Assembly: GCF_001507535.1 (NCBI RefSeq)
Contig: NZ_LQBN01000002.1
Span: 372,001-436,000 of the forward strand
From: Thiomicrospira sp. WB1
Lineage (GTDB): Bacteria; Pseudomonadota; Gammaproteobacteria; Thiomicrospirales; Thiomicrospiraceae
Reading direction: 5' to 3'
Length of the DNA stretch: 64,000 nt
Shown: positions 472-57,039 of the stretch, in pieces
Position numbering within the stretch: the stretch's first letter is position 1
Layout: each line of letters begins with the position of its first letter
The notes under the pieces: generated by a model
Told to the model about the DNA's origin: nothing
The model's database searches: none
The model's input: the letters and a program-made list of their open reading frames with translations, nothing else
Translations under genes and position numbers: made by a program

Positions 472-2700
472 GTGGTGTCACCATTGGGCAGGATACAACA
501 ACGCATGGTCGGTGTCTTACTGGCGCTCATGTTTGGGCTTCAGTTGAGCGGTTGCAGCCAGGACGATCCCTGGAATCGTCCCTATACTCAATCTCAAGCC
601 CAAAGTAACACTCTGTTCAGCAGTTTTGCCACGCCGCCCAAGCATCTGGACCCGGTGCGCTCCTACAGCGCCAATGAGTGGGCGATTATCTCGCAAGTCT
701 ATGAACCGCCTTTGCAGTACCAGTACTTGAAACGCCCTTACACGCTCGAGCCATTGACCCTGACGCAGATGCCGGAGCAACGTTTTCTCGACGAACGTCA
801 ACAACCTGTTGATGCCGATTCCGACCAGGTTCGTTACACCGAATACCATTTCTACCTGCGTGACGACATCCGCTATCAGCCGCATCCGGCCTTTGCACGC
901 GATAAAGACGGACAGTTTCTCTATCACAATTTGACGCCCGCACAACTGGACGGTTTGGAACGGCCGGGAGATCTAGCTCAAAGCGGCACCCGTCGGTTGG
1001 TCGCGCAGGATTATGCGCTGGCGATCAAACGCATGGCTTACAAGCCCAATCATTCACCCATTCTGGGCAATATGCGTCATCTCATCGTCGGATTGGCGGA
1101 CTATTCCGACCGTGTCTCCCAGCAGCGCCTTGACTTAACCGCGTTGAGAGACACACCGATTGAAGGCGTTCACGTTCATTCGGACACGCATTTTTCCATT
1201 CGCATTCATGGGCGTTACCCCCAGTTTCTATACTGGCTGAGCATGAACTTCTTCGCCCCGATCCCTTGGGAGGCGCTGGCGTTTTACCAGCAACCAGGCC
1301 TGGTCAAAAAGAACCTGACTTTGGATACGTATCCGGTCGGAACCGGTCCGTACCGATTGGTGGAAAACAACCCGAACCGACAAATGCACCTGCAACGCAA
1401 CCCCCATTATCAGCATGGTACCTATCCCTCCGAAGGTCTGCCGGAGGGAGCCGACCCGGCGCTGTTGGCCGATGCAGGACGAGCCCTGCCATTGATTGAT
1501 GATGTAATTTATTCTCTGGAAAAAGAAAGCGTGCCCCTTTGGAACAAGTTCCTGCAAGGGTATTACGATGCTTCCGGCGTCAGTTCCGACAGTTTTGATC
1601 AGGCGATTTCGGTTTCGTCACAGGGCGAACTCAACCTGACACCGGAGATGCAGGAGAAGGGGATTGCCTTTCTGAGCGCGGTGCAACCAACGGTATTTTA
1701 TCTTGGGTTCAATATGGCCGATCCGGTCGTCGGCGGCTACGACCAATCGGCCCGTCAGTTAAGACAGGCCATCAGCATTGCCGTGGACATGGAAGAATAC
1801 ATCTCCATTTTTCTCAATGGCCGGGGGGTTGCGGCTCAAGGCCCCATTCCGCCTGGTATTTATGGGTATGAGCGCAGTCGTGAGCATTACAATGACGTGG
1901 TGTATCGCTGGCAGAAACAAGGACCGGTGCGCCGCTCACTGGACGAAGCCAGAGCCCTGCTCAGCAAGGCAGGGTATCCGAATGGACAAACGCCAGAGGG
2001 CGAGCCTTTGACCCTTTATTACGATACGCCTGCCACCGGACCGGATGCCAAGTCGCAATTGAACTGGTATCGCAAGCAACTGGCCAAGCTGGGCATTGAA
2101 CTGGTGATTCGGGCGACCGACTACAATCGGTTTCAGGAAAAAGTCCGTGGCGCCAAAGTACAACTGTTTTCCTGGGGCTGGAATGCGGACTATCCGGACC
2201 CGGAAAATTTTCTGTTTCTGTTGAGCGGAAATCAGGCGGTCATCAATACCAATGGCAGTGGCGTCAACGCGTCGAATTATGACCGGCCTCAATTCAATCA
2301 ATGGTTTGACCAGGTCAAACGTTTGCCGAATGGGCCCAAACGAAAGGCACTGATCCGAAAAATGGTGCGGCTGGTACAACACGATGCGCCCTGGGTCTGG
2401 GGCCTGCATCCCAAAAGCCTGTCCTTGTTCCATAACTGGTACCACAATGTCTGGCCCAACCCCATGGCCAATAACACCCTCAAATACCGGCGGCTTGACC
2501 CCGAAACCAGAGTGGCAAACCAACAGGCATGGAATCGGCCTGTGGTCTGGCCCCTGTGGCTGCTTGGTGCGCTGATTCTGGTTTCTATCTATCCCTTGAT
2601 GGCGGCTTACCGTAAACGGCAACAGCAAACCCTTACACAGCCGGCTATAAGTCAGAAAAGCACCTCGGATCAAGGCAAACAAACCCGGGAGGACGTCTGA
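472..2700 (+). CDS. Peptide-type ABC transporter substrate-binding protein with lipobox and C-terminal membrane helix
   Basis: A 742-residue solute-binding protein of family 5 (DppA/OppA/YejA group), the substrate-capture subunit of an oligopeptide-type importer. The N-terminus is a lipoprotein signal ending in LQLSGC (Cys28). Typical family segments follow, such as YPVGTGPYRL and a WNADYPDPENFLFLL stretch. The tail is odd: residues about 692-714 form a hydrophobic helix (WPLWLLGALILVSIYPLM) followed by a basic segment, so the protein may also be anchored in the inner membrane. GTG at 472 is chosen because GAAGG lies about 6 bases upstream; GTG at 475 and ATG at 505 are alternatives. The stop overlaps the next start (TGATG), so it is translationally coupled to the permease. 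Substrate is not deducible. Confidence 0.88.
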   Translation: MVSPLGRIQQRMVGVLLALMFGLQLSGCSQDDPWNRPYTQSQAQSNTLFSSFATPPKHLDPVRSYSANEWAIISQVYEPPLQYQYLKRPYTLEPLTLTQMPEQRFLDERQQPVDADSDQVRYTEYHFYLRDDIRYQPHPAFARDKDGQFLYHNLTPAQLDGLERPGDLAQSGTRRLVAQDYALAIKRMAYKPNHSPILGNMRHLIVGLADYSDRVSQQRLDLTALRDTPIEGVHVHSDTHFSIRIHGRYPQFLYWLSMNFFAPIPWEALAFYQQPGLVKKNLTLDTYPVGTGPYRLVENNPNRQMHLQRNPHYQHGTYPSEGLPEGADPALLADAGRALPLIDDVIYSLEKESVPLWNKFLQGYYDASGVSSDSFDQAISVSSQGELNLTPEMQEKGIAFLSAVQPTVFYLGFNMADPVVGGYDQSARQLRQAISIAVDMEEYISIFLNGRGVAAQGPIPPGIYGYERSREHYNDVVYRWQKQGPVRRSLDEARALLSKAGYPNGQTPEGEPLTLYYDTPATGPDAKSQLNWYRKQLAKLGIELVIRATDYNRFQEKVRGAKVQLFSWGWNADYPDPENFLFLLSGNQAVINTNGSGVNASNYDRPQFNQWFDQVKRLPNGPKRKALIRKMVRLVQHDAPWVWGLHPKSLSLFHNWYHNVWPNPMANNTLKYRRLDPETRVANQQAWNRPVVWPLWLLGALILVSIYPLMAAYRKRQQQTLTQPAISQKSTSDQGKQTREDV
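1293..1304. repeat. Iterated palindrome ACCAGGCCTGGT, copy 1
   Basis: Perfect 12-bp palindrome inside the substrate-binding protein gene, read there as Q-P-G-L-V. Right flank CAAAAA fits the consensus. See the finding on the iterated palindrome. Confidence 0.95.
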
Positions 2701-3680
2701 TGTTGGCTTACATGGTGCGACGGCTTCTCTACGCTGTGCCCATTCTAATCGGGGTGAACCTGATTACGTTTGCGTTGTTTTTTATGGTGAACACGCCTGA
2801 AGACATGGCACGCGCCCAGTTGGGTGCCAAACAGACCAGCCCGGAAATGATCCAGGCATGGAAAGAAAATCACGGTTACGACAAGCCTCTTTTTTTCAAC
2901 TCGCAGGCAGAGGGCGTCAACACACTGACACAAACCCTGTTTGTTCAGGAGTCGCTCAAACTGTTCATGCTGGACTTTGGTCAGGCAGATAATGGCCGCC
3001 AGATCAGTGAAGACATACAGGAGCGAATGTGGCCTTCGCTGGCCATTGCACTGCCAACATTTCTGATCGGCTTGGTGACCAACATCGCTCTGGCGCTACT
3101 GATTGTGCTGTTTCGTGGGTCGGTGCTCGACACCGCAACCATGGTCGTGGCGGTGGCAATCATGTCGATTTCCGGTTTGTTCTACATCATTGCCGGGCAG
3201 GTGTTGTTCAGCAAACTCTTGCACTGGGTGCCGATTTCCGGGTATCAGTCGGGCTGGGAAATGTGGCGTTTTCTGATTCTGCCGGTCGCCATTGGTGTGT
3301 TCGCGGGCTTAGGGGCAGGCGTGCGCTGGTACCGGAGCATTTTTCTGGAAGAAATCAACAAGGATTACATTCGAACCGCGCGAGCCAAAGGTTTGTCCGA
3401 AATTCGTTTGCTGTTTGGGCATCTCCTTCAAAACGGCTTATTACCGATCCTGACCGGGGTGGTGGTGATTATTCCGACCTTGTTTATGGGCAGTCTGATC
3501 ATGGAGTCATTTTTTGGCATTCCGGGGCTGGGCAGTTACACCATCGATGCGATCAATGCTCAGGATTTCGCCATTGTCAAAGCCATGGTGTTCCTGGGTG
3601 CTTTGTTGTACATCATTGGGCTGATCCTAACCGATCTATCCTATGCGCTGTTTGATCCAAGAGTGAGGTTTGACGCATGA
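2700..3680 (+). CDS. Peptide-type ABC transporter permease (DppB/YejB type)
   Basis: A 326-residue inner-membrane permease with about six hydrophobic segments. It starts MVRRLLYAVPILIGVNLITFALFF, the usual opening of DppB-like subunits, and carries the cytoplasmic EAA-type loop (FLEEINKDYIRTARAKGLSE) that contacts the ATPase. It ends DPRVRFDA, also typical. Its start overlaps the stop of the binding-protein gene and its stop overlaps the next permease, so the genes form one operon. With the partners at 3677 and 5038 it forms the translocation pore. Confidence 0.92.
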   Translation: MLAYMVRRLLYAVPILIGVNLITFALFFMVNTPEDMARAQLGAKQTSPEMIQAWKENHGYDKPLFFNSQAEGVNTLTQTLFVQESLKLFMLDFGQADNGRQISEDIQERMWPSLAIALPTFLIGLVTNIALALLIVLFRGSVLDTATMVVAVAIMSISGLFYIIAGQVLFSKLLHWVPISGYQSGWEMWRFLILPVAIGVFAGLGAGVRWYRSIFLEEINKDYIRTARAKGLSEIRLLFGHLLQNGLLPILTGVVVIIPTLFMGSLIMESFFGIPGLGSYTIDAINAQDFAIVKAMVFLGALLYIIGLILTDLSYALFDPRVRFDA

Positions 3681-5020: not shown

Positions 5021-5037
5021 TCTGAAGGAAAAACGCT

Positions 5038-6654: not shown

Positions 6655-6668
6655 ACCGAACCGGCGGC

Positions 6669-9098
6669 TTAACTGTCAGCATCGCCTTGTTCCATGGCCA
6701 GCAATCGCTGTTGGGTTTTGAGCAGCGAGTCCGGGTTCAAACTGATGCTGTCGATGCCTTGTTCCACCAGAAACGCCGCCATCTCCGGGTAATCCGAAGG
6801 CGCCTGTCCACAAAAGCCGGTATGTAGCCCGCACTGCTTGGCGGTTTCAATCGCCATTTGAATCATGGTTTTCACACCGGCTTCGCGCTCATCAAAGCTG
6901 CCGGCCACCTGACCGGAATCCCGGTCCACGCCCAGAACTAACTGAGTCAAGTCGTTTGAGCCAATCGAAATCCCGTCAAAGAAGGGGGCAAACGCCTTCA
7001 TTTGCAACACATTGTTGGGGATTTCGCACATCATATACACCTCCAACCCGTTGTGATGACGGGGCAGGCCATTGTCGGCCATCACTTTCAACGCCTGCTG
7101 CGCCTCCGTTACCGTGCGCACAAAGGGCAACATCACCTTGAGATTGGTCAGGCCGAAATCTTCGCGCACGGCCTTGATGGCGGCGCATTCCATGGCAAAC
7201 GCCGGGGCAAATGATTCAGAAACGTAGCGTGCCACCCCGCGAAAGCCGAGCATCGGATTTTCTTCTCGCGGTTCAAAGGCCGGCCCCCCCAAAAGGGATC
7301 GATATTCATTGGATTTGAAATCCGACAGGCGCAACACCACCGGCCTTGGGTAAAAGGCGGCACACAGCGTGGCAATGCCTTCGCTCAGGCGTTGAATAAA
7401 AAAGGCTTCGCCCTCATTCTGGTCAAACCCTGCTTGACTCAGAATGTCGACAATCTCTTTCTGGGTTGCCTCGTCTTTGATTGCTTCGGGTTTGATCAGA
7501 GCAAGCGGGTGGATTTTGATCGATTCATTGATCATAAACTCCATGCGGGCCAGCCCGACCCCGGCACTGGGCAGAAAGCGATGGCTGAAGGCCATATCCG
7601 GATTGGCCAGGTTCAACATCAGATCGGTCTCAGTGGTGCCCAGCTCGCTCAGATCCGTCTCAATTTTTTCAAAAGGCTGTTCGTCTGCATACACCTTACC
7701 GGTGTCGCCTTCCACACAGGAGACAGTCACAGTCTGGGTGTCGACCGGCATCAGGTCTGTGGTGGCTTTGCCGCAACCGACAATCGCCGGAATCCCCAGC
7801 TCGCGTGCAATGATGGCAGCATGACAGGTCCGTCCGCCGCGGTTGGTGACAATCGCCGCGGCTTTTTTCATGATTGGCTCCCAGTCCGGCGTGGTCATGT
7901 CGGTCACCAGAATGTTCCCCGGCTCAAACTGGCTGATTTCGGCGACGTCTTCAATGATTTTGACACGTCCAACCGCGAGCCGATCGCCCACCGCACGACC
8001 AGAGGTCAGCACCTGTGCATCGGAGCGGGGATGGATCTGAAACTGGGTCAGACACTGATGGTTTTGGAGGGAACGCACGGTTTCAGGCCGCGCCTGCACG
8101 ATGTAAAGCTGGCCATCCACGCCGTCTTTGGCCCATTCAATGTCCATGGCTTTGGCCGCTTTCTGATCCACGCTGTAATGTTGTTCAATACGCATGGCGA
8201 AATCAGCGAGTTTTAACACCTCGTCATCCGATAAACAAAACCGTCGCCGCTCCTCAACCCGGGTTTGAATGTTTTTAACCGGTGATTTTTTCAGGCCGCT
8301 GGTGTCATAAATCATCTTGAGCTTTTTGGCCCCCAGATGACGGCGCAACACATGGCGAAACCCCTGCTCAAAAGTGGGCTTGTGGACATAAAATTCGTCC
8401 GGATCCACCGCGCCCTGGACCACATTTTCTCCCAGTCCCCAAGCCCCGGTGATAAACACCACCTGGTCAAAGCCAGATTCGGTGTCAAGGGTAAACATGA
8501 CCCCGGAACTGGCCAGATCCGAGCGCACCATTTTCTGCACGCCGATCGACAACCCGACCTGAAAATGGTCGAACCCCTTGTCGATGCGATAGTGGGTAGC
8601 GCGGTCGGTAAACAGTGAGGCAAAGCAACGTTTACAGGCTTCGACCAGGGCCTCATAGCCAGAAATATTTAGATAAGTTTCCTGCTGGCCGGCAAAACTG
8701 GCATCGGGCAAGTCTTCGGCTGTGGCGGAACTGCGCACCGCCAGCGTAATTTCTCCCTCAAAGCGCTGGTTCAGTTCCGACCAGGCCTGGTGAATTTCCC
8801 GTTTTAACACCTCGGGCCATTCCGCTTCGATAATGGCTTCACGGATTGCGTGGGTTCGCTCTCCCAGCTCGGTGACATTGTCTGCATCCAGCGTATCCAG
8901 TTGTGTGTGTAGAAAGTCCCACAGATCATTGTCGGTCAGAAGTTTCCGATAGGCCTCGGCGGTGATGGCAAAGCCGTCCGGCACGGGAATGCCTTTGGGC
9001 GTCAGTGCCTGGAACATCTCTCCCAGCGAAGCGTTTTTCCCCCCGACCAGAGGAATGTCATGAATACCGATTTCATTGAAAAAACGAATGTAGCGCAT
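6669..9098 (-). CDS. ppsA: Phosphoenolpyruvate synthase
   Basis: An 809-residue PEP synthase, which makes PEP from pyruvate, ATP and water for gluconeogenesis. Order of parts: N-terminal ATP-binding domain (VGGKNASLGEMF; AVRSSATAEDLPDASFAGQQETYLN), the swivelling domain with the phosphorylated His in GGRTCHAAIIARELGIPAIVG, and the C-terminal PEP/pyruvate barrel (GSNDLTQLVLGVDRDS; GFCGQAPSDYPE). Start 9098 (MRYIRFFNEIGIHD) is chosen over the in-frame site at 9167 because AGGAGAGG lies just upstream and the extra residues are unlike the family. No ppsR-like regulator gene is next to it in this window. The iterated palindrome occurs inside the gene (8780) and just upstream (9132). Confidence 0.96.
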   Translation of the reverse strand: MRYIRFFNEIGIHDIPLVGGKNASLGEMFQALTPKGIPVPDGFAITAEAYRKLLTDNDLWDFLHTQLDTLDADNVTELGERTHAIREAIIEAEWPEVLKREIHQAWSELNQRFEGEITLAVRSSATAEDLPDASFAGQQETYLNISGYEALVEACKRCFASLFTDRATHYRIDKGFDHFQVGLSIGVQKMVRSDLASSGVMFTLDTESGFDQVVFITGAWGLGENVVQGAVDPDEFYVHKPTFEQGFRHVLRRHLGAKKLKMIYDTSGLKKSPVKNIQTRVEERRRFCLSDDEVLKLADFAMRIEQHYSVDQKAAKAMDIEWAKDGVDGQLYIVQARPETVRSLQNHQCLTQFQIHPRSDAQVLTSGRAVGDRLAVGRVKIIEDVAEISQFEPGNILVTDMTTPDWEPIMKKAAAIVTNRGGRTCHAAIIARELGIPAIVGCGKATTDLMPVDTQTVTVSCVEGDTGKVYADEQPFEKIETDLSELGTTETDLMLNLANPDMAFSHRFLPSAGVGLARMEFMINESIKIHPLALIKPEAIKDEATQKEIVDILSQAGFDQNEGEAFFIQRLSEGIATLCAAFYPRPVVLRLSDFKSNEYRSLLGGPAFEPREENPMLGFRGVARYVSESFAPAFAMECAAIKAVREDFGLTNLKVMLPFVRTVTEAQQALKVMADNGLPRHHNGLEVYMMCEIPNNVLQMKAFAPFFDGISIGSNDLTQLVLGVDRDSGQVAGSFDEREAGVKTMIQMAIETAKQCGLHTGFCGQAPSDYPEMAAFLVEQGIDSISLNPDSLLKTQQRLLAMEQGDADS
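8780..8791. repeat. Iterated palindrome ACCAGGCCTGGT, copy 2
   Basis: Perfect copy inside ppsA. On the coding strand it is read H-Q-A-W-S, so the palindrome lies in the Q-A-W frame. Flanks are less AT-rich than in other copies. Confidence 0.95.
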
Positions 9099-9131
9099 CG
9101 CAGCCTCTCCTGTCATTGCTTGACCCAATTC

Positions 9132-9143
9132 ACCAGGCCTGGT
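9132..9143. repeat. Iterated palindrome ACCAGGCCTGGT, copy 3
   Basis: Perfect copy in the gap between slyX and ppsA, about 34 bases upstream of the ppsA start. The right flank TAAAA fits the extended consensus. Confidence 0.95.
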
Positions 9144-9175
9144 TAAAAGCGCATCGCCCCGGACCATCCCGCTAG

Positions 9176-11295: not shown

Positions 11296-11361
11296 AAAAA
11301 ACGATTTCCTTTGCTCTTTTTTCGCGCCCCCGAGCGTTGGTGAAAACTCGTTCCACGGTCG

Positions 11362-13473: not shown

Positions 13474-13485
13474 ACCAGGCCTGGT
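13474..13485. repeat. Iterated palindrome ACCAGGCCTGGT, copy 4
   Basis: Perfect intergenic copy 23 bases after the tRNA terminator, with TTTTTT on the left and CACTT on the right. Confidence 0.95.
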
Positions 13486-16664: not shown

Positions 16665-17372
16665 ATGACCGAACTCAACAGTCTGCCGGACAACTGGATG
16701 GTGTTTGACGAGGCACAAGGATTGTCGAATGATCTGTGTGCGGCAATCCTTGCCCACGCAGACGACGCTATCCGTCAGCGCGGTGCCTTTCATCTGGTTC
16801 TGGCGGGCGGCACCACACCTTTAGTGACTTACCGTCAACTGGCTCATTCACAGGCCGACTGGGCACACTGGCACATTTATCTCGGGGATGAGCGTGTTCT
16901 GCCGAGCGATGACCCCGAACGCAACAGTGTGCAAATTGACCAGGCCTGGTTAAATCATGTGCCGATCCCGACCCGTCAAGTACACTGGATTCCCGCCGAA
17001 TTGGGGTTGATGCTGGCACAGCGGGCGTATCAACACACGATTGAGCGACTGCTGGGCCAACAGCCGTTTGATGTGGTGTTATTGGGCATGGGCGAGGATG
17101 GTCATACGGCCAGTCTGTTCCCGGGGCACCGGCACGATCTGGATCAACTGGTGGTCACCGAAAGCCATTCACCCAAACCACCGTCTGAACGAGTGTCCCT
17201 CAACGAACCGGCACTGGCCAACACCCATCACCTTTATAAAATCGTGACCGGAGCCAGCAAACGTGACGCCGTGGCCCAATGGTTGAAAGGGGAAGCTTTG
17301 CCCATCAATCAGATCCAAGCGGAAAGTCAGGGTGGGCAAACCCAGGTCTGGGTCGATTCTCAGGCGCTCTGA
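16665..17372 (+). CDS. pgl: 6-phosphogluconolactonase
   Basis: A 235-residue DevB-type lactonase that hydrolyses 6-phosphogluconolactone, completing the oxidative pentose phosphate branch. Motifs LAGGTTPLVTYRQL, LGDERVLPSDDPERNS and GMGEDGHTASLFPG are all present. The ATG at 16665 follows the zwf stop by one base; the longer upstream frame overlaps zwf and is rejected. The 3' end overlaps relA by 13 bases in convergent orientation. It contains a perfect iterated palindrome. Confidence 0.94.
   Translation: MTELNSLPDNWMVFDEAQGLSNDLCAAILAHADDAIRQRGAFHLVLAGGTTPLVTYRQLAHSQADWAHWHIYLGDERVLPSDDPERNSVQIDQAWLNHVPIPTRQVHWIPAELGLMLAQRAYQHTIERLLGQQPFDVVLLGMGEDGHTASLFPGHRHDLDQLVVTESHSPKPPSERVSLNEPALANTHHLYKIVTGASKRDAVAQWLKGEALPINQIQAESQGGQTQVWVDSQAL
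16939..16950. repeat. Iterated palindrome ACCAGGCCTGGT, copy 5
   Basis: Perfect copy inside pgl, read D-Q-A-W-L, with the right flank TAAA matching the extended consensus. Confidence 0.95.
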
Positions 17373-19558: not shown

Positions 19559-19713
19559 AGTTCACCACGTAATATCTAAGCGACGATTTTAGACCAAAGC
19601 GTTGGCGGGGTTAAGGCGAAAATATGAATTGATACTGGAATTTCCCGCCCGGATCAGTGCGATTCATACACAGGTGGGCTAGAATATCGGTTTTTAAACC
19701 AATCATTTATTTT

Positions 19714-20796
19714 ATGCCTGCAGATTCATATCGGCCGATTGAACAGGCCCGCAACAGCGCCGAAGCGTTCAGCGTCGCCCCGATGCTTGACTGGACCGAT
19801 GCCCATTGCCGTGTGTTCCATCGGGTGATTTCTGACCAGGCCTGGTTGTACACCGAGATGGTCACCACCGGGGCGATTCTTCACGGTGACAACTTGCCGC
19901 GCTTTTTGGGACATGACCCCACGGATGCCCCCTGTAGCCTGCAGTTGGGTGGCAGCGATGCCAAAGATCTGGCTCAGTGCGCCCGCCTGGGAGAAGAGTG
20001 GGGCTACCAGGAAATCGACCTCAATGTCGGCTGTCCCTCGGATCGGGTTCAAAATAATTTGATCGGTGCCTGCCTGATGGCGCATCCCAAGACCGTCGCG
20101 CAGGCTGTGGCGGAAATGAAGTCAGCCGTCCAGCATATCCCCATTACCCTCAAATGCCGTATTGGCATTGATGAGCAAGAAGATTTTGACAGTTTCATGG
20201 CCTTTGTCGAACCCCAGATCAAAGCCGGGGTGGATGGGCTGATTGTGCATGCGCGCAAAGCCTGGCTGCAAGGACTGTCGCCCAAGGAAAACCGCACCAT
20301 ACCGCCATTGCGTTACGATTGGGTGCGGCGTTTGAAACAGCTTTATCCAGATTTGCCTGTGGCCATCAATGGCGGGATCGAAGGACCCATAAGCGGTTTG
20401 CGGTTTCTTTCGACCGACACCGAGCGCAATCTGCCTCGCCTCGATGGCGTTATGATCGGGCGGGCGGTGTATGAAAAACCTTATCTCCTCAACCAGCTCA
20501 ATGATAACGCCCACAAAATCAGCCGGTTTGATGCGGTTGAACGCATGCTGCCTTACATTGAACAACACCTTGAAAAGGGGGGGAAGCTCAACCAGGTGAC
20601 GCGCCACATGCTCGGCTTGTATGCCGGATTGCCGGGTGGACGAAAATGGCGGCGTTATTTGTCCGAACGCGCCTTTCGCCCGGAGGCCGGGCTGCATACG
20701 TTGCTGGAGGCCCGGACACTGGTTGAAAACGAAATTGAACGCATGCGTGATCAATACCCGGATAAGACCCGACGCATGCTGGAGGAGGCTTCATGA
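19714..20796 (+). CDS. dusA: tRNA-dihydrouridine(20/20a) synthase
   Basis: A 360-residue FMN-dependent enzyme that reduces uridines in the tRNA D-loop. It shows FSVAPMLDWTDAHCR at the start, the catalytic Cys at about residue 107 in NVGCPSDRVQ, CRIGID for substrate contact, INGGI for FMN phosphate binding, and the DusA-type C-terminus (MLGLYAGLPGGRKWRRYLSE). ATG 19714 is chosen because the upstream extension is unlike the family. Its last four bases overlap the xseA start. An iterated palindrome lies near its 5' end. Confidence 0.95.
   Translation: MPADSYRPIEQARNSAEAFSVAPMLDWTDAHCRVFHRVISDQAWLYTEMVTTGAILHGDNLPRFLGHDPTDAPCSLQLGGSDAKDLAQCARLGEEWGYQEIDLNVGCPSDRVQNNLIGACLMAHPKTVAQAVAEMKSAVQHIPITLKCRIGIDEQEDFDSFMAFVEPQIKAGVDGLIVHARKAWLQGLSPKENRTIPPLRYDWVRRLKQLYPDLPVAINGGIEGPISGLRFLSTDTERNLPRLDGVMIGRAVYEKPYLLNQLNDNAHKISRFDAVERMLPYIEQHLEKGGKLNQVTRHMLGLYAGLPGGRKWRRYLSERAFRPEAGLHTLLEARTLVENEIERMRDQYPDKTRRMLEEAS
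19835..19846. repeat. Iterated palindrome ACCAGGCCTGGT, copy 6
   Basis: Perfect copy inside dusA, again read D-Q-A-W-L, the same peptide as in pgl although the two proteins are unrelated. Confidence 0.95.
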
Positions 20797-22692: not shown

Positions 22693-22704
22693 ACCAGGCC
22701 TGGT
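22693..22704. repeat. Iterated palindrome ACCAGGCCTGGT, copy 7
   Basis: Perfect intergenic copy 65 bases after the xseB stop, flanked by GTT on the left and TAAAAA on the right. Confidence 0.95.
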
Positions 22705-25882: not shown

Positions 25883-25894
25883 ACCAGGCCTGGT
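25883..25894. repeat. Iterated palindrome ACCAGGCCTGGT, copy 8 (most extended)
   Basis: Perfect intergenic copy between the response regulator and kinase genes. Symmetry extends five T/A pairs on each side, so the palindrome is 22 bp long, the best form of the motif in the window. A further partial half-site (AACCAGG) lies just to its left. Confidence 0.97.
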
Positions 25895-35095: not shown

Positions 35096-36208
35096 CTAAT
35101 CCAAAGGCGAAACCGGGTAGGAGCCCAGTAGCTTAAAATAACTGCATTGTGCCTGCACTTCGGTCAGGGCTTCATGCACATCAGGTTGTTGCTGATGGCC
35201 CAAAATATCAATGTAAAAAATATAGTCCCAGCGTGTCTCCGTAGACGGCACTGAAATGATCCGGGTCATACTGATGCCTCGCTTGGCAAACCCATCCAGA
35301 ACACGAATCAAGGATCCGGCTTGGTTGGGCACCGACAGAATCATCGCGGTTTTATCCACTCCGCTGGGACCGGCCGCCTCATGGCCCAGCACCCAAAACT
35401 TGGTGGTGTTGCTCTTTTGATCTTCAATGTGCGTTTCCAGTATCTTCAACCCGTACAACCGGGCCGCCTGTTCCGACGCAATGGCACCGATTTTCGGATC
35501 GGCCTCGGCCATTTGCGCGGCCACGGCATTGGACGCCACCTCTTCAATCACCAGGCCTGGTAAGTTTTGACTCAACCAGTTTTCGCATTGGCCCAGAGCC
35601 TGAGGATGCGCCACAATTTTTTTCAACTGATGCGGATCAGGGGTTTGTGCCAACAGACAATGGTGAATGGCCAGATCCACTTCACCGGTGATGGTCAAAG
35701 ACGTATCCATCAGGGACTTTTGCGTCTGCTTGACCACCCCTTCGCTGGAATTTTCTACCGGAACCACGCCATACTGAACGTGCTTTTTTTCAACGGCCTG
35801 AAACACTTCCTGAATGCTGCCAACCGCATGCGGATGAACCGACGTACCGAACTGCTTGATGACACAGGCATGGCTGTAGCTGCCCTCCGGCCCCAGATAA
35901 GCAACTTTGATTGGCTGTTCCAGCGCCAGACACAATGACATGATCTCACGGAACAAACGTGCCATGTCTTCGTCGGGAATCAGACTGTGATTGCGCTCTT
36001 TGACCGCACGCAATACTTGCGCTTCGCGTTCGGGCCGGTAAAACACCGCCTCGACCTGCCCGCCTCGGGTTTTGATGTCGGCCACTTTCTGAGCGCATTC
36101 AGCCCGTTGTGCAATCAGAGACTGGATCTGCGCATCAATCGCATCAATTTCTTCACGAATCACACCGAGCTCGGCTTGTTCAGAGGCAGAAGGAGTTGCG
36201 TTCGACAT
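35096..36208 (-). CDS. pheA: Bifunctional chorismate mutase / prephenate dehydratase
   Basis: A 370-residue P-protein for phenylalanine synthesis. Residues about 10-95 form the AroQ chorismate mutase (REEIDAIDAQIQSLIAQRAE, FYRPEREAQVLRAV). The dehydratase follows (VAYLGPEGSYSHACVIKQFG, VVPVENSSEGVVKQT, NTTKFWVLG), and a C-terminal ACT domain (VPNQAGSLIRVLDGFAKRGI, SVPSTETRWDYIFYIDI) binds phenylalanine for feedback inhibition. It starts 12 bases after serC on the same strand. A perfect iterated palindrome lies within it. Confidence 0.96.
   Translation of the reverse strand: MSNATPSASEQAELGVIREEIDAIDAQIQSLIAQRAECAQKVADIKTRGGQVEAVFYRPEREAQVLRAVKERNHSLIPDEDMARLFREIMSLCLALEQPIKVAYLGPEGSYSHACVIKQFGTSVHPHAVGSIQEVFQAVEKKHVQYGVVPVENSSEGVVKQTQKSLMDTSLTITGEVDLAIHHCLLAQTPDPHQLKKIVAHPQALGQCENWLSQNLPGLVIEEVASNAVAAQMAEADPKIGAIASEQAARLYGLKILETHIEDQKSNTTKFWVLGHEAAGPSGVDKTAMILSVPNQAGSLIRVLDGFAKRGISMTRIISVPSTETRWDYIFYIDILGHQQQPDVHEALTEVQAQCSYFKLLGSYPVSPLD
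35550..35561. repeat. Iterated palindrome ACCAGGCCTGGT, copy 9
   Basis: Perfect copy inside pheA. On the coding strand it is read L-P-G-L-V, a different frame from the Q-A-W copies. Confidence 0.95.
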
Positions 36209-40876: not shown

Positions 40877-41530
40877 ATGAAATGTGTGCTGTTTGACCTG
40901 GACGGAACCCTGCTGGATACGTCCTATGACTTTGCCTATGCGCTCAACCAAACCTGTCGTCATTATGGTGTGCGTCCCCTGCACTACCAGACCATCCGAA
41001 AAACGGTTTCGCAAGGCGGTCTCGCCATGACACAACTGGCCTTTCCCAATTTGTCCGATGCCGAAATCCAGGAGCGACGCGAACATTTTTTGTCCGTGTA
41101 TTACCGCCACATTGATCATCACACACGTTTGTTTCCGGGCTTGGAAGGCGGTTTGAAGCACCTGGCTGAAAACAAGATTCCCTGGGGCATCGTGACCAAT
41201 AAGCCCACCTGGCTGACCGAACGATTGCTGGAGACTCTGACCTTTCCCAGCGAACCCAAAACGGTCATTTGTGGCGACACCTTGGCTCAGAAAAAACCCA
41301 ATCCGGAACCCATGTGGCTTGCGGCCGAACAAAGCGGGGTTTCGCCCAAAGACTGTCTCTATCTGGGGGACCACCCCAGAGACATCGAAGCCGGCGTCAA
41401 CGCTGGCATGCAAACCGGCGCGGCGTTGTTTGGCTACCTACCGGAAGGCGCCGGCGAGGATGCCTGGCCCGCCGACTTCCACTTTGAAACCCCGATTGAA
41501 ATCAGCCATTTTTTACAGGAGCGTTTATGA
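40877..41530 (+). CDS. mupP: HAD phosphatase, MupP/Gph family
   Basis: A 217-residue haloacid dehalogenase phosphatase. Motif I is FDLDGTLLDT, motif II GIVTNKP, motif III/IV KKPNPEP and YLGDHPRDIEAG. In pseudomonads the gene between ubiG and yciK encodes MupP, the N-acetylmuramate 6-phosphate phosphatase of cell wall recycling; the same synteny here makes that likely. Phosphoglycolate phosphatase (Gph) is the alternative and would also be useful to a Calvin-cycle organism. The stop overlaps the yciK start by four bases. Confidence 0.75.
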   Translation: MKCVLFDLDGTLLDTSYDFAYALNQTCRHYGVRPLHYQTIRKTVSQGGLAMTQLAFPNLSDAEIQERREHFLSVYYRHIDHHTRLFPGLEGGLKHLAENKIPWGIVTNKPTWLTERLLETLTFPSEPKTVICGDTLAQKKPNPEPMWLAAEQSGVSPKDCLYLGDHPRDIEAGVNAGMQTGAALFGYLPEGAGEDAWPADFHFETPIEISHFLQERL

Positions 41531-42228
41531 GTGCCATTTTGATTACGGGCGCCGCTCAGGGACTGGGACGCAGTCTGGCCTTGGCGCTGGCCAACACGCT
41601 TAACACCCCAACCGACCTGGTATTGCTGGACAAAGATCAGAAAGCGCTGAACCTGCTCTATGACGAATTGATCTCTCTGAACTCTACTCAGGTTGAACCG
41701 GCCCTGTATCCCATGGACCTGAGCGGCGCCGAGCCACGACATTTCCAACAGCTGGCGCAGGCCCTGCATGAGTTGGGCGGTGTTGACAGCGTCTGGCTCA
41801 ATGCCGCCGAACTGCCCGCGTTTACCCCCATCGCTCATTTTGATGAAGCCCAATGGCTGCAATTGTTGCAGACCAATCTGACGGCCAATTTTTATCTGAT
41901 GAAAGCCCTGTTGCCGGTCTTAAACGACAATGCTGATCTGATCACCATTCTCGACCAACAAACCGGGCAGAACCCAGCTTATTATGGCGCCTATGGCGTT
42001 GCTAAAGCCGGCCTGGCACAACTGATGACCACCGTCGCGGCCGAACACAGCGATCAAAACTGGCATTTTTACCAGGCCTGGTTACCCGCGTTTCAATCCA
42101 ATACCCGCTCACGACAGTTTCCGTCCGAAAACCCGGCCACTCTGCCCCACCACGAACAGATAGCCAACGAGCTGATGGCAGCATTGCAACAAACAGCCAC
42201 GCCGGCCTGGTGGGTCAAACTCAATTAG
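41527..42228 (+). CDS. YciK-like short-chain dehydrogenase
   Basis: A 233-residue SDR protein placed like yciK. It has the cofactor motif ITGAAQGLGRSLALAL, NAAEL in place of NNAG, and the catalytic YGVAK. The usual Ser before the YxxxK is not evident: the segment reads ILDQQTGQNPAYYGAYGVAK. Substrate is unknown for the family. The gene contains an iterated palindrome (read Y-Q-A-W-L) and converges with the CIA30 gene with an 8-base overlap. Confidence 0.8.
   Translation: MSAILITGAAQGLGRSLALALANTLNTPTDLVLLDKDQKALNLLYDELISLNSTQVEPALYPMDLSGAEPRHFQQLAQALHELGGVDSVWLNAAELPAFTPIAHFDEAQWLQLLQTNLTANFYLMKALLPVLNDNADLITILDQQTGQNPAYYGAYGVAKAGLAQLMTTVAAEHSDQNWHFYQAWLPAFQSNTRSRQFPSENPATLPHHEQIANELMAALQQTATPAWWVKLN
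42071..42082. repeat. Iterated palindrome ACCAGGCCTGGT, copy 10
   Basis: Perfect copy inside the yciK-like gene, with TTTTT on the left and TACCC on the right; read Y-Q-A-W-L. Confidence 0.95.
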
Positions 42229-46183: not shown

Positions 46184-46819
46184 TCATTCGCCGGGTTGAG
46201 TAAACGCGCCCTGCCCCTGACGGATCAGTTGCGGGACATCGTCGGTGAAGTCAATGATGGTGGTGGGCTCAAATCCACAGTGCCCGCCGTCGACCACGCC
46301 ATCCAGCGCATGGCCGATCGTTTCCTGAATTTCCCACGGGTCGGTCATCGGGACCGTTTCCCCCGGCAGGATGAGGGAGACGGTAATCAGTGGCTGCTCA
46401 AAACAGTCCAAAATCGCCCGGGCAACGGCATTCGGCGTTACACGAAGACCGATGTATTTTTTCTTGGGACTTTGCAGCCGTCGCGGCACCTCGCGACTGG
46501 CCGGTAAAATAAACGTATAAGGCCCGGGCAAACTGGCTTTCAGGTAGCGAAATTGCGTGTTTCCCACCTTGGCGTAGGAAGACAGATGGCTGAGGTCATG
46601 ACACATCAGCGCAAAGGGATGCTTGGGATCAAGCTGGCGAATCTCACGAATCCGATCCGCGCCTTCCTTGTTGTCGAGCAGACACCCCAATGCGTAACCG
46701 GATTCGGTGGGATAGGCAATCACCCCGCCCTGCTGCAACAGATCGGCGACCTGCCCCACTAGCCTCGGCTGCGGTGTTTCGGGATGAATGGCGATGTACT
46801 CACATGCGTTCTTGGCCAT
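46184..46819 (-). CDS. yciO: YciO-type Sua5/YrdC family protein
   Basis: A 211-residue protein of the threonylcarbamoyl-AMP synthase superfamily. It has the YrdC motifs GVIAYPTESGYALGC, RLQSPKKKYIGLRV and a C-terminal DVPQLIRQGQG. It matches YciO rather than TsaC in its length and neighbours. Its exact role is uncertain in the family. Start 46819 (MAKNACEYIAIHP) is used; a TTG frame farther upstream begins within the palindrome and is rejected. Confidence 0.88.
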   Translation of the reverse strand: MAKNACEYIAIHPETPQPRLVGQVADLLQQGGVIAYPTESGYALGCLLDNKEGADRIREIRQLDPKHPFALMCHDLSHLSSYAKVGNTQFRYLKASLPGPYTFILPASREVPRRLQSPKKKYIGLRVTPNAVARAILDCFEQPLITVSLILPGETVPMTDPWEIQETIGHALDGVVDGGHCGFEPTTIIDFTDDVPQLIRQGQGAFTQPGE

Positions 46820-46867
46820 ATCGCTCTGTCTTTTCCTCTCTATGCGATGCTCTGGAGTGGTTTTTTT

Positions 46868-46879
46868 ACCAGGCCTGGT
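46868..46879. repeat. Iterated palindrome ACCAGGCCTGGT, copy 11
   Basis: Perfect copy between the PHP-domain gene and yciO, with seven T on the left and CAAAA on the right. Confidence 0.95.
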
Positions 46880-46894
46880 CAAAACCGGACTGCA

Positions 46895-48625: not shown

Positions 48626-48627
48626 CC

Positions 48628-48942
48628 ATGTACTACGCCATTTATGCCGAAGACGTTGCCAACAGTGTGCCTTTGCGAGCTCAGGCGCGTGACGCTCATA
48701 TCGCCCGCCTCAAAGAAATGGAGGCGGCCGGCCGATTGATGCTTGCAGGCCCTTTTCCGAACGCCGACACCGACATCCCCGGAGACGCGGGCTTCAGCGG
48801 CAGCCTGATCGTGGCGCAGTTTGACTCGTTGGCGGCAGCCCAAGCCTGGGCTGAAGCCGACCCTTACAAAGCTGCGGGCGTCTATCAGTCGGTCACGGTC
48901 AAACCTTTCAAGCCGGTCTTACCGGCCAATATGACAGCCTGA
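48628..48942 (+). CDS. yciI: YciI family protein
   Basis: A 104-residue ferredoxin-like-fold protein. It has MYYAIYAEDV, RDAHIARLKEMEAAGRLMLA with the conserved His, GPFPNAD, and WAEADPYKAAGVYQSVTVKPFKPV. The conserved His-Asp pair is present, but the reaction is unknown. It starts two bases after yciB, the usual partner. Confidence 0.92.
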   Translation: MYYAIYAEDVANSVPLRAQARDAHIARLKEMEAAGRLMLAGPFPNADTDIPGDAGFSGSLIVAQFDSLAAAQAWAEADPYKAAGVYQSVTVKPFKPVLPANMTA

Positions 48943-48965
48943 TTCACGGGAAGAGGAACACACCC

Positions 48966-49942: not shown

Positions 49943-50850
49943 AACTGACGTTATCCTATCTGGGCGTGGTCTTCATCTGGGCCACCACACCACTGGCGAT
50001 ACAATGGAGCGGTCAGGACGACTGGTTTCTGGGCGTCGCCGGACGCATTCTGATCAGCGCCCTGCTCATCCTGCCGATTCTGATCTGGATCACACGCCGC
50101 CGCCTCACTTTTCAAGCTCAGGCGTTCAAAGTCTATGCAGCGGCGGCTCTGGGCATGCTCGGTGGCATGACCCCTATGTATTATGCGGCCCAGACCATGC
50201 CCTCTGGCTGGATTTCCCTGATTTTCGGGCTCACCCCGATGCTGATCGGTCTGTTTGCCGCCGGGCTCCTGCAGGACAACGTCATGACCCTGAAAAAATG
50301 GACTGGCATTCTGGTCAGTTTCAGTGGTCTGGCACTGGTGCTGGGCCCTCAATGGTCAGCGCAGCTAAACCCTCAACTGGGAATCGGTGTGGGACTGGCC
50401 CTGCTGGCTGCCGCCAGCCATTCCTTGAGCACCGTACTGGTAAAACGCTTTAACCGGACCTTGCAGCTTCCCAACACCCATATTGTGGCCGCTGCCGTCT
50501 GGCTCACCAGTCTGGTCTATCTGATGAGTGTGCCCGGCTTTGTCACACAATTACCCCAGTTATCGACGCAGGCACTGGGCGCCATTGTTTACCTGGGTGT
50601 TTTAGGTTCTCTGCTTGGGTTTATCCTCTATTATTATGTGCTTCATCACTTGGATGCAGTGCGCATCGGCCTGATTCCATTGATCACGCCGGTGATGGCC
50701 TTGTTGCTTGGGTATTTTCTCAATCAGGAACCACTGACGACGACCATCGCCGCCGGTGCCGCGCTGGTGGTCTTTGGGCTTTTAATTTTTGAATTCGGCC
50801 AACACCTCTCACGGCGAACGCTTCGTCTGATCACGGCCCGTTGGTTTTAA
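49939..50850 (+). CDS. EamA/DMT-family transporter
   Basis: A 303-residue permease with ten hydrophobic helices and two EamA repeats (LGVVFIWATTPLAIQWSGQD; GLTPMLIGLFAAGLL; LIPLITPVMALLLGYFLNQE). It overlaps the small asparaginase gene by four bases. This suggests a link to amino acid or amide export, but that is inference from context only. Confidence 0.9.
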   Translation: MKLTLSYLGVVFIWATTPLAIQWSGQDDWFLGVAGRILISALLILPILIWITRRRLTFQAQAFKVYAAAALGMLGGMTPMYYAAQTMPSGWISLIFGLTPMLIGLFAAGLLQDNVMTLKKWTGILVSFSGLALVLGPQWSAQLNPQLGIGVGLALLAAASHSLSTVLVKRFNRTLQLPNTHIVAAAVWLTSLVYLMSVPGFVTQLPQLSTQALGAIVYLGVLGSLLGFILYYYVLHHLDAVRIGLIPLITPVMALLLGYFLNQEPLTTTIAAGAALVVFGLLIFEFGQHLSRRTLRLITARWF

Positions 50851-50864
50851 CGCAGGGAAACGCA

Positions 50865-51164
50865 ATGAATTATCAATTGCTGAAATTCATGGCTTTGCTG
50901 GAGGGCACCTCACTGTTGCTTCTGATCGGGATTGCCATGCCTTTGAAGTATGGATTGGGTTACGAACAAGCTGTGAGTGTGGTGGGCATGGCGCATGGCG
51001 TGTTGTTTCTCGCTTTCAACGCGGTGCTGGTCTATTATGCATTTCGCAGCCCCATGAACGAAATGCAGGCCTTCAAAGGGTTTATCGCCTCGCTGATACC
51101 GGCGGGCACGTTTGTCTACAAAGCCACGGTGATCAAACGCTTAAGCCAGCAAGACTCATTTTGA
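50865..51164 (+). CDS. DUF3817 membrane protein
   Basis: A 99-residue protein with three hydrophobic helices (MALLEGTSLLLLIGIAMPLK; VVGMAHGVLFLAFNAVLVY; GFIASLIPAGTFVY), matching DUF3817. The function is unknown. ATG 50865 has a GGGAAA site upstream. Its TGA stop shares the A with the iterated palindrome at 51164, and it ends the yciB operon. Confidence 0.85.
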   Translation: MNYQLLKFMALLEGTSLLLLIGIAMPLKYGLGYEQAVSVVGMAHGVLFLAFNAVLVYYAFRSPMNEMQAFKGFIASLIPAGTFVYKATVIKRLSQQDSF

Positions 51165-51175
51165 CCAGGCCTGGT
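51164..51175. repeat. Iterated palindrome ACCAGGCCTGGT, copy 12
   Basis: Perfect copy whose first base is the last base of the DUF3817 stop codon. It has TTTTG on the left and TAAAAA on the right. Confidence 0.95.
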
Positions 51176-51203
51176 TAAAAAGCCACCGAACTCGTGCCTT
51201 CCG

Positions 51204-51749: not shown

Positions 51750-51776
51750 GCTGAGGCATCCTTAATTTGAATTGGT

Positions 51777-54708
<2,932 letters not shown>

Positions 54709-54887
54709 CCGGTATTCCTCTGATTGGGATGGCACAGGTGAACAAGGCCGACATGATGGGCGTTCACGCTTTCTATTGATGTGCCGATTTTACTTTAATT
54801 ACGCACTAAAAAAAAGCGCTTCGAGTGGTCGACTGACGCGATTGAGCCGCTAAAATAGCAATTTCATCCACTCAAAGGGAGACAGTC

Positions 54888-56261
54888 GTGAACCAAAAAA
54901 GCGCCGCACCATTGCAACAGGATGAGTCTTATCTCCTGGGCATCGACTTGGGGACGTCAGGGGTGCGTCTATGCCTGTATCGTTGCCGGGATCAGGCCGC
55001 TGAGGGACTGGCTGTCGCGAATTTTCATGACGCTGACGGTGCCTACGACTGCCCCAAAACCTGGGAGGCGGCTCTCATCCAGGCCTTCTCGTCCCTGCAC
55101 CGGATGCACGGGGGCGCTCTGCGCCAAGTGATCGGCATAATGGCCGATGCCACGTCTTCCAGCGTCTGTTTGAGTCAAGATGGTCGCCCTGTCACTGACT
55201 TTCTGATGTATGACGACAAGCGGGCGCAACCTCAAGCAGAACGCTATGCGGAAACGGCCCCAAACGACAGCGCGGCGCATGGCGCATCCAGCACTTTGGC
55301 CAAAACCCTTTGGTTGCTGGAAAACACCGCTCTTTCGGATCCTGAGCATTCCCATAATCTGCGCATTATGCATCAAATTGATTGGCTGACGCATTGGCTA
55401 ACCGGGCAAACCGACCTGGCCACCGACGCCAACAACGCGCTGAAACTTGGTTTTGACCCAGTGACGAATCAGTGGCCTCACTGGGTTCAAACTGAACTCC
55501 TGACAGATCGCGGAGCGGGTATCGGGATCCTTCCCTCTGTGGTGACACCGGGAACACCGCTGGCACCCATTGCTCCGACCCTCGCTGCCCGCTTTGGCAT
55601 CTCGCCTCAAGCCTGTGTGCACGCCGGCACCACCGACAGCATTGCCGGTTTTTTTGCCACCGGCGCCAGCAAAACCGGGGAGGCCGTCACGTCCCTGGGT
55701 TCCACTCTGGCATTGAAACTGTTGAGCGATCGGCCGGTTTTCGCGCCGCAATACGGGGTTTACAGCCACAAAGTCGGTCCCTGGTGGCTGGCAGGCGGTG
55801 CCTCCAATGCCGGTGGCAACGCGCTGGTTACCCGCTACGGCCTGGACCCAATCAAGCATTGGTGCCAAAAGCCCCTCAGTGCTGCGGACATTCATGACCG
55901 CATCGGCGCTCTGGACTATTATCCGCTTAAATCAAAGGGAGAGCGTTTTCCATTCCAGGACCCGAATAAGTGCCCCGACTTTGAACCGCCCGCCCCGGAT
56001 GCCTTCACGGAGTTTCTGGCCGCGCTGGCAGGCCTGGTAAAAATCGAAGTTCTGGGCTACCAGCGTCTGGCCGAATTGGGCGCGTCATCGGTTCAGTCCA
56101 TCCACAGTGTTGGCGGCGGACTGAAAAACCCGCTGTGGCAGACCCTACGCAAGGAAGCGCTGCCCATTTCAGACATAGCCCCCCTACACGACCAGGCCGC
56201 TTTCGGGGTCGCTCGGCTGTTACACCTTGCCAAAGAGGGCTTTGATATCAGTCAGACGTAG
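54888..56261 (+). CDS. FGGY-family pentulose kinase, D-ribulose kinase-like
   Basis: A 457-residue ATP-dependent sugar kinase. The N-terminal phosphate loop is LLGIDLGTSGVR, and the second catalytic Asp is in AGTTDSIAGFF. VTSLGSTLALKLLSD, YSHKVGPWWLAGGASNAGG and ALDYYPLKSKGERFPF match the plant/cyanobacterial D-ribulose kinase group (AtXK-1, SePSK) better than bacterial xylulokinase, as far as I can judge from memory. It starts at GTG 54888 with AAAGGGAGA upstream. It overlaps the convergent cbbY by 14 bases. A substrate in the ribulose/xylulose group fits both family and context. Confidence 0.8.
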   Translation: MNQKSAAPLQQDESYLLGIDLGTSGVRLCLYRCRDQAAEGLAVANFHDADGAYDCPKTWEAALIQAFSSLHRMHGGALRQVIGIMADATSSSVCLSQDGRPVTDFLMYDDKRAQPQAERYAETAPNDSAAHGASSTLAKTLWLLENTALSDPEHSHNLRIMHQIDWLTHWLTGQTDLATDANNALKLGFDPVTNQWPHWVQTELLTDRGAGIGILPSVVTPGTPLAPIAPTLAARFGISPQACVHAGTTDSIAGFFATGASKTGEAVTSLGSTLALKLLSDRPVFAPQYGVYSHKVGPWWLAGGASNAGGNALVTRYGLDPIKHWCQKPLSAADIHDRIGALDYYPLKSKGERFPFQDPNKCPDFEPPAPDAFTEFLAALAGLVKIEVLGYQRLAELGASSVQSIHSVGGGLKNPLWQTLRKEALPISDIAPLHDQAAFGVARLLHLAKEGFDISQT

Positions 56262-57039
56262 CCTCCGATGCAGCACGCATTAACTGCTCCAACACACTCA
56301 AATTCACATAAGGGTGTTGACGCCCCAGCTCGGCACAACGCCCGCCCAAAACCTGATACGGCGTTTCCGGTTCACCCAGATCGCTCAGGGTCAGCAGCGC
56401 TTTGGAAAAATCATCATCGCGCGTGTAGTCGTTGATGGTAACCAGTGTCGGAACCTGAGCCGCCAAAGCGGAGCGAATACCATTGTCGGAGTCTTCAAAG
56501 GCCAAACACTGTTCCGGCGTCAAGTCCATGTTTCTCAATGTCCAATCATAAATGTCCGGCGCCGGTTTTTTTGCAGGGACAATGTCGCCGGCGGCAATCA
56601 CTTCAAACCACGTCTCTGCGTTCTGTCCCAAAGTATGGGTAAGCAAGGCGGTGACATTGGCCGGTGTCGTGGTGGTGACCACAGCCATGCGAACCCCGGC
56701 GTCTCTGGCTTCATGAATCAGCCGTTCAACGCCTGGACGCAAGGGAATGCGCCCCTCACTTAAAAGCTGGGTGTAAAAGCGGGTTTTGGCCGCATGCAAG
56801 CCTTTGACAAAGCCATCAAAATCACCAGGCCTGGTAAAATCCGTATGAAAGCGATCCAAAAAATAACGAATCCGTTCTTTGCCGCCCGTCACCGCCAGCA
56901 GTTGACCGTACAAGGCTTCATCCCAGTGCCAGTCCAGACCGGCTTCTTCAAACGCCAGGTTGAACGCGACCCGATGACCGTCCTTTTCGGTGTCTGCCAG
57001 TGTGCCGTCGACGTCAAATAATAAGGCTTGCAACGCCAT
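56248..57039 (-). CDS. cbbY: HAD phosphatase CbbY (xylulose-1,5-bisphosphate phosphatase)
   Basis: A 263-residue HAD enzyme. Motif I is LLFDVDGTLADTEKDGHRVAFN, followed by the cap-domain segment DWHWDEALYGQLLAVTGGKERI, which is distinctive of CbbY. Motif II is AVVTTTTPANV, and later VPAKKPAPDIYDWTL and FEDSDNGIRSAL. CbbY removes xylulose 1,5-bisphosphate, a misfire product that inhibits Rubisco. Start 57039 has AAGGAG upstream. Rubisco itself is not in the window. Confidence 0.88.
   Translation of the reverse strand: MALQALLFDVDGTLADTEKDGHRVAFNLAFEEAGLDWHWDEALYGQLLAVTGGKERIRYFLDRFHTDFTRPGDFDGFVKGLHAAKTRFYTQLLSEGRIPLRPGVERLIHEARDAGVRMAVVTTTTPANVTALLTHTLGQNAETWFEVIAAGDIVPAKKPAPDIYDWTLRNMDLTPEQCLAFEDSDNGIRSALAAQVPTLVTINDYTRDDDFSKALLTLSDLGEPETPYQVLGGRCAELGRQHPYVNLSVLEQLMRAASEATSD
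56824..56835. repeat. Iterated palindrome ACCAGGCCTGGT, copy 13
   Basis: Perfect copy inside cbbY. On the coding strand it is read T-R-P-G-D, a third frame usage. The right flank is AAAAT. Confidence 0.95.

What the first reader, a model, noticed from the sequence alone, without database searches (positions are those of the whole stretch)
1293..56835. Perfect 12-bp palindrome ACCAGGCCTGGT repeated 13 times in 64 kb
Copies read directly from the sequence start at 1293, 8780, 9132, 13474, 16939, 19835, 22693, 25883, 35550, 42071, 46868, 51164 and 56824. At equal base frequency one 12-mer is expected 64000/4^12, about 0.004 times. Most copies also have T-rich left and A-rich right flanks, giving a wider consensus close to TTTTACCAGGCCTGGTAAAA. 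The motif is short, perfectly symmetric and dispersed, so it resembles highly iterated palindromes such as HIP1 of cyanobacteria more than REP or IS elements. It may be the site of a sequence-specific DNA-binding protein (nucleoid organiser, methylase or regulator) that has not been described for this lineage. This is inference; the excess is seen.
Basis: partly seen in the sequence, partly recalled or inferred. Interest (0 to 1): 0.88.

Follow-up and report, generated by a model that had tools for sequence, protein, structure and literature searches.

The report
Family-wide probable DNA uptake sequence
A 12-letter DNA word repeated about 400 times in this sulfur-oxidising bacterium's genome, rewritten as related "dialects" in its relatives, looks like the tag by which such cells would recognise and take up DNA of their own kind, a trait so far reported only in two other bacterial families.

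Summary
ACCAGGCCTGGT occurs 13 times in the window and 400 times in the 2.28-Mb genome (reversed control 0; Markov expectation about 0.3 in a 604-kb sample holding 112). The host is a Hydrogenovibrio close to H. halophilus, family Thiomicrospiraceae.

The full site is about 22 bp, WWWTn-ACCAGGCCTGGT-nAWWW. Ten of 11 alignable window sites are unchanged in H. halophilus, although the DNA around them is only 78% identical. Sites are evenly spaced, avoid an 83-kb mobile island, and are four-fold enriched between genes, more often between converging genes than at divergent promoters.

The motif is confined to this family among about 430 Gammaproteobacteria searched. It exists as species dialects: GCCAGGCCTGGC, AGCAGGCCTGCT, ACCGGCCGGT, and one non-palindromic dialect, AACAGGCCGGGT, with an A-tract on one side only. 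Some clades have lost it.

C5- and N4/N6-methyltransferase families do not track the motif, so the HIP1/methylase reading is disfavoured. The pattern best fits a DNA uptake sequence (DUS/USS) for natural transformation; ComEC is present and a pilus locus was found. This would make a third family and the first mostly palindromic kind. No receptor was identified and no uptake experiment exists.

The parts
1293..1304 (.). ACCAGGCCTGGT, coding (frame 2 of gene 472-2700)
   Evidence: identical in H. halophilus
8780..8791 (.). ACCAGGCCTGGT, coding (PEP-utilising synthase-like gene 6669-9167)
   Evidence: identical in H. halophilus
9132..9143 (.). ACCAGGCCTGGT, near the 5' end of gene 6669-9167
   Evidence: not alignable, but H. 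halophilus has a site at about the corresponding place
13474..13485 (.). ACCAGGCCTGGT, intergenic, after the tRNA cluster
   Evidence: identical in H. halophilus
16939..16950 (.). ACCAGGCCTGGT, intergenic by the simple gene caller used
   Evidence: identical in H. halophilus
19835..19846 (.). ACCAGGCCTGGT, coding (gene 19657-20796)
   Evidence: identical in H. halophilus
22693..22704 (.). ACCAGGCCTGGT, intergenic by the simple gene caller used
   Evidence: not alignable to H. halophilus
25883..25894 (.). ACCAGGCCTGGT, intergenic; the only copy with the full TTTTT...AAAAA flanks
   Evidence: identical in H. halophilus
35550..35561 (.). ACCAGGCCTGGT, coding (pheA-like gene 35096-36208)
   Evidence: identical in H. 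halophilus
42071..42082 (.). ACCAGGCCTGGT, coding (gene 41527-42228)
   Evidence: identical in H. halophilus
46868..46879 (.). ACCAGGCCTGGT, at the listed start of ORF 46184-46882 (start codon uncertain)
   Evidence: one mismatch in H. halophilus
51164..51175 (.). ACCAGGCCTGGT, overlapping the end of ORF 50841-51164
   Evidence: identical in H. halophilus
56824..56835 (.). ACCAGGCCTGGT, coding (gene 56248-57039)
   Evidence: identical in H. halophilus

Best explanation
The motif is most likely a DNA uptake sequence of the DUS/USS kind. A surface receptor, probably on the type IV pilus, would bind the GGCC-centred core and adjoining A/T-rich DNA, so that DNA carrying it is taken up preferentially through the pilus/ComEC route and recombined. 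Uptake bias plus recombination (molecular drive) would then accumulate and repair copies at roughly one per 5 kb, preferentially where they cost least. When the receptor's specificity changes, the whole genome is slowly rewritten into a new dialect; when specificity is lost, the motif decays. Shown here: enrichment, extended motif, positional conservation, even spacing, island avoidance, family restriction, dialects, loss, and presence of ComEC. Inferred: the uptake function, the receptor and the drive.
For: 400 copies genome-wide. Core plus A/T-rich flanks resemble the H. influenzae consensus aAAGTGCGGTnrwttttnnnnnnrwtttw (PMC1939737). Dialects share an inner GGCC core but differ outside it; on a GyrA tree the named examples group by clade, as DUS dialects do (PMC3630211, PMC12616744). 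One dialect is asymmetric, AAAAA-CTC-AACAGGCCGGGT, with its A-tract on one side only, as in USS. 38% of sites lie outside genes against about 10% of DNA (p about 1e-11), close to the 35% of H. influenzae (PMC1939737). 9 of 32 convergent but 2 of 44 divergent gaps hold a site (p=0.006). Spacing CV 0.60 against 0.97 for random (p<0.0005). No site in an 83-kb relaxase/integrase island, 18 expected. 10 of 11 sites unchanged at 78% identity, against 8.6% of GGCC-centred 12-mers (p=2e-10). ComEC in 57 of 63 family genomes; a pilus ATPase/T2SSF/pilin locus was seen in one motif-rich Thiomicrospira.
Against: No receptor was found: neisserial ComP_DUS has no match over cut-off, and neither pilin presence nor sequence cleanly separates motif+ from motif- genomes. 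ComEC is equally present in motif- genomes, so the motif does not track competence as such. Palindromic uptake sequences are not known. Even spacing is clear only in the Hydrogenovibrio genomes, not in G027 or G062. No paper held reports natural transformation or uptake bias in this family.
Confidence: 0.6

Rival explanations
1. Binding site of a chromosome-organising protein (nucleoid-associated, occlusion or loop-anchoring), spaced evenly to structure the nucleoid; a dimer reads the palindrome.
For: Palindromic core and A/T flanks in most dialects, even spacing of about 4.6 kb, strong positional conservation.
Against: One dialect is asymmetric with a one-sided flank. Copy number runs from 0 to over 1,000 cores between related species. 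Whole clades lack the motif, and about 1,000 sites have been rewritten in some dialects. No regional bias is visible in the parts of the genome listed, unlike matS, SlmA or Noc sites. Even spacing is not general.
Confidence: 0.2
2. HIP1-like palindrome created and kept by a DNA methyltransferase coupled to mismatch repair (Elhai 2015, PMC4390886).
For: GC-rich palindrome, species-specific replacement by other palindromes, high copy number; the site contains GGCC and two CCWGG boxes (sequence).
Against: C5-MTases (PF00145) are absent from G000, G006, G009, G012, all g6 genomes and others that are motif-rich. N4/N6-MTases (PF01555) are absent or marginal in many, and several motif-rich genomes (G009, G012, G024, G026, G047, G050, G061, G062) have neither. 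The asymmetric dialect is not a palindrome. Other MTase families were not searched.
Confidence: 0.1
3. Transcription terminator, RNA element or regulator operator.
For: Enriched near gene ends.
Against: Folding of five window sites is no better than shuffles; no hairpin plus T-run of useful strength; most sites lie inside genes; divergent promoter gaps are avoided; copy number is far too high for a regulon.
Confidence: 0.04
4. Remnant of a mobile element or chance cluster.
For: None beyond repetition.
Against: Only the 22-bp site is shared between copies; it is absent from the mobile island and is fixed at orthologous positions.
Confidence: 0.01

Closest known systems
USS of Pasteurellaceae (AAGTGCGGT / ACAAGCGGT)
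   Same: Hundreds to thousands of copies, short core plus A/T-rich flank, about 35% outside genes, invariant inner core with family-internal dialects (PMC1939737, PMC12616744).
   Different: Unrelated sequence; mostly palindromic here, with A/T flanks on both sides except in the AACAGGCCGGGT dialect; lower density (about 1 per 5 kb); uptake not tested.
DUS of Neisseriaceae (ATGCCGTCTGAA and seven other dialects)
   Same: 12-mer, dialects congruent with phylogeny around an invariant core, accumulation in permissive regions (PMC3630211).
   Different: DUS is not a palindrome; the ComP receptor family is not detected here.
HIP1 (GCGATCGC) of cyanobacteria
   Same: Highly iterated palindrome, replaced by other palindromes in some lineages, sometimes extended by flanks (PMC4390886).
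   Different: HIP1 and its alternates track cognate methyltransferases; this motif does not track PF00145 or PF01555 and has a non-palindromic dialect.
matS/MatP, SlmA and Noc sites (own knowledge)
   Same: 12-14-bp palindromes bound by dimeric nucleoid proteins.
   Different: Those have tens of copies and a regional bias; here hundreds to over 1,000 with no bias seen, and dispensable across clades.

Membership tests
DNA uptake sequence (DUS/USS) | Short motif present in hundreds to thousands of genomic copies | tested here: met
   400 copies in G000; up to 718 12-mers or 1,173 cores in relatives
DNA uptake sequence (DUS/USS) | Dialects within the family around an invariant inner core | tested here: met
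DNA uptake sequence (DUS/USS) | Enriched in permissive or intergenic DNA and depleted in foreign DNA | tested here: met
DNA uptake sequence (DUS/USS) | Host carries transformation machinery (pilus, ComEC) | tested here: met
   ComEC and pilins in G000; pilus ATPase and T2SSF seen in G053 only; ComEA, DprA and PilQ not searched
DNA uptake sequence (DUS/USS) | Known receptor family (ComP) | tested here: not met
   PF16732: no match over cut-off in 63 genomes. ComP is the receptor of Neisseriaceae only; the Pasteurellaceae receptor is a different, predicted pilin (PMC12616744)
DNA uptake sequence (DUS/USS) | Motif increases DNA uptake or transformation | not testable with these tools
   needs a transformation assay
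HIP1-type highly iterated palindrome | Perfect palindrome | tested here: inconclusive
   met in most dialects, not in AACAGGCCGGGT
HIP1-type highly iterated palindrome | Cognate DNA methyltransferase co-occurs with the motif | tested here: not met
   PF00145 and PF01555 do not track the motif; D12, HsdM and other MTase families not searched
matS/SlmA/Noc-type chromosome sites | Regional bias relative to origin or terminus | tested here: inconclusive
   density uniform in the parts listed; origin and terminus not mapped
REP/BIME or intrinsic terminator | Stable stem-loop, mainly extragenic | tested here: not met

The most novel reading that the evidence does not exclude
Thiomicrospiraceae are a third bacterial family with self-specific DNA uptake sequences, independently evolved, mostly palindromic, and with dialects that include one symmetric-to-asymmetric switch, read by an unidentified receptor unrelated to ComP.
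Probability: 0.55. Interest if true: 0.9.

Novelty: new variant of a known kind. Interest (0 to 1): 0.8.

Why it matters
[quoted passage not shown] A third, unrelated instance in free-living sulfur oxidisers would show that such specificity evolves repeatedly and outside animal hosts, give a natural series of gains, dialect switches and losses for testing molecular drive, and suggest a transformation route for organisms of biotechnological interest (fast CO2 fixers). If it is instead a chromosome-organising site, it is still an undescribed system with hundreds of conserved sites.

Tried and rejected
ComP_DUS (PF16732) and GspH/FimT (PF12019) as receptor families: the first has no match over cut-off, the second appears only in three motif-poor genomes. 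Presence or absence of prepilins across 21 genomes: no clean split; the 460-aa pilin is missing in motif- G007 and G008, but motif- G030, G031 and G052 keep similar ones. C5 and N4/N6 methyltransferases as cause: rejected by distribution. ComEC as correlate: nearly universal, not informative. RNA structure: not significant. Alternative enriched motif in motif- genomes G008, G030, G031 and G052: none found in 55-79 kb each; repeats dominate two of the samples. One-sided flank rule in G000: flank sides only weakly anticorrelated (r=-0.20), so not claimed.

Full report
OBSERVATION. The genome (2,279,450 bp, six contigs) holds 400 perfect copies; the same word read backwards occurs 0 times. With one mismatch allowed the count is 503 against 5. 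In 604 kb, 112 copies stand against 0.27 expected by an order-3 or order-4 Markov model. Of the 90 palindromes that can be made from the same half-site letters, this one occurs 81 times in 464 kb and the others 0 or 1 times. The proposed refutation (a count near the Markov expectation) is not met.

HOST. GyrA in the window is 94% identical to Hydrogenovibrio halophilus DSM 15072; the next relatives are Hydrogenovibrio, Thiomicrorhabdus and Thiomicrospira.

ANATOMY. The aligned sites show a symmetric 22-bp element, WWWTn-ACCAGGCCTGGT-nAWWW: position 7 from the dyad is free, 8 is A in 76%, and 9-11 are 82-91% A/T in G000, with much the same in G006.

PLACEMENT. With a simple codon-usage gene caller, 31 of 81 sites lie fully outside genes, which make up about 90% of the sequence (p about 1e-11). 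Gaps between convergent genes hold a site in 9 of 32 cases, divergent gaps in 2 of 44 (p=0.006). Inside genes one frame dominates, reading xAC-CAG-GCC-TGG-T (31 of 47). Spacing is far more even than random: CV 0.60 against 0.97, p<0.0005, separately significant in H. halophilus; weaker in G005; not seen in G027 or G062. An 83-kb stretch of lower GC (C1:209-292 kb) with a TrwC relaxase and an integrase core has no site where 18 are expected.

CONSERVATION. Of the 11 window sites that can be aligned to H. halophilus, 10 are unchanged over all 12 bases and one has a single change. The aligned DNA is 78% identical, and only 8.2% of all 12-mers (8.6% of those centred on GGCC) are unchanged (p=2e-10). 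Two H. halophilus sites in the aligned part lack a site here, differing by three bases each.

DISTRIBUTION AND DIALECTS. In 63 genomes of the family the 8-mer core CAGGCCTG is bimodal: about 240 to 1,170 copies or 0 to 74. In 364 Gammaproteobacteria outside the family the 10-mer CCAGGCCTGG never exceeds 46, against 263-747 in the family members with the motif in that sample. Relatives carry related words: gCCAGGCCTGGc (G005), AGCAGGCCTGCT (G042), mixed half-sites (G024, G053), ACCGGCCGGT (G027; about 1,100 matches to ACMGGCCGG per strand), and AACAGGCCGGGT (G023; a closely similar form in T. cannonii). The last is not a palindrome: 37 exact copies in 180 kb, with an A-rich tract at positions -4 to -8 on one side only and none on the other. 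A GyrA tree suggests an ancestral motif with losses in at least two Thiomicrorhabdus clades, and the dialects of the named examples group by clade (Hydrogenovibrio SC-1 and CG07 fell just under the cut-off there but carry low counts of CAGGCCTG-containing forms). Motif status for the named genomes rests on 4-23 kb each, so the number of losses is approximate.

MECHANISM. The combination of a short core with A/T-rich flanks, hundreds of copies, an excess in permissive non-coding DNA, avoidance of mobile DNA, an invariant inner core with clade-wise dialects, whole-genome rewriting between dialects, and occasional complete loss is the signature of DNA uptake sequences. About 35% of H. influenzae uptake sequences lie outside genes, and their consensus has one-sided A/T tracts (PMC1939737); dialects follow phylogeny around an invariant core in both known families (PMC3630211, PMC12616744). 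The even spacing fits a drive that needs about one site per incoming fragment (inference). ComEC is present in 57 of 63 genomes, including this one. Pilins are present throughout the 21 genomes searched, and a pilus ATPase (MshEN/T2SSE) and T2SSF lie beside one in G053. Uptake itself is inferred, not shown.

RIVALS. A methylase-driven HIP1-like process predicts a cognate methyltransferase in every motif+ genome (PMC4390886); C5-type enzymes are absent from this genome, H. halophilus and all Thiomicrospira (g6), and N4/N6-type enzymes are absent or marginal in many motif-rich genomes, several of which have neither. Other MTase families were not searched. A dimeric nucleoid protein would explain the palindrome and the spacing, but not the asymmetric dialect, the swings in copy number or the wholesale losses; it remains the main rival. 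RNA and terminator roles have no folding support.

WEAK POINTS. No receptor was found: ComP_DUS has no match over cut-off, GspH appears only in three motif-poor genomes, and neither presence nor sequence of the prepilins separates motif+ from motif- genomes. ComEC does not track the motif. The literature held has no report of transformation or uptake bias in this family; papers outside that library were not searched.

Noticed in passing
G000 C1:209038-292354 (L141-L145): 83-kb motif-free island of about 46% GC with TrwC relaxase, integrase core, HipA-like protein, TonB receptor, RTX-repeat protein and a type II secretion cluster with four pseudopilins.
   Followed up: partly
window 60252-60376: About 120-bp segment that matches H. 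halophilus (G006) in several other places, on the other strand: a dispersed repeat of unknown nature.
   Followed up: no
G006 (L160, L219-L225): CTGAGCGAAGCC repeated 14 times in 159 kb of H. halophilus; one copy in the window at 51798 (reverse strand).
   Followed up: no
L199:8216-8746, L200:8607-9131, L201:8155-8676, L202:7958-8575, L203:7892-8452: Solitary prepilin of about 174 aa in Thiomicrorhabdus with an unusually conserved C-terminal half (PGEDxxxPGRLKTVLS ... FKATWGGSSGANYGLIAG ... NGSQLCM); present in motif+ and one motif- genome.
   Followed up: partly
L159 (G000 C1:834000-852000), L204, L205, L206: Large prepilins (230-590 aa) sharing an LPCPDT(N/D)GDG signature, some with repeat-rich C-terminal parts; no Pfam family beyond the N-terminal methylation motif in those scanned.
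   Followed up: partly
L237-L238 (G021), G052 loci (L130, L174, L195, L196), G062 loci (L178, L194, L234-L236): High-copy local repeats: CAGTGGCCATCA x24 in 40 kb, CCAAGGCAGCTA x96 in 79 kb, and a 47-copy repeat (CGCGGGAGAAAC) of possible CRISPR type.
   Followed up: no
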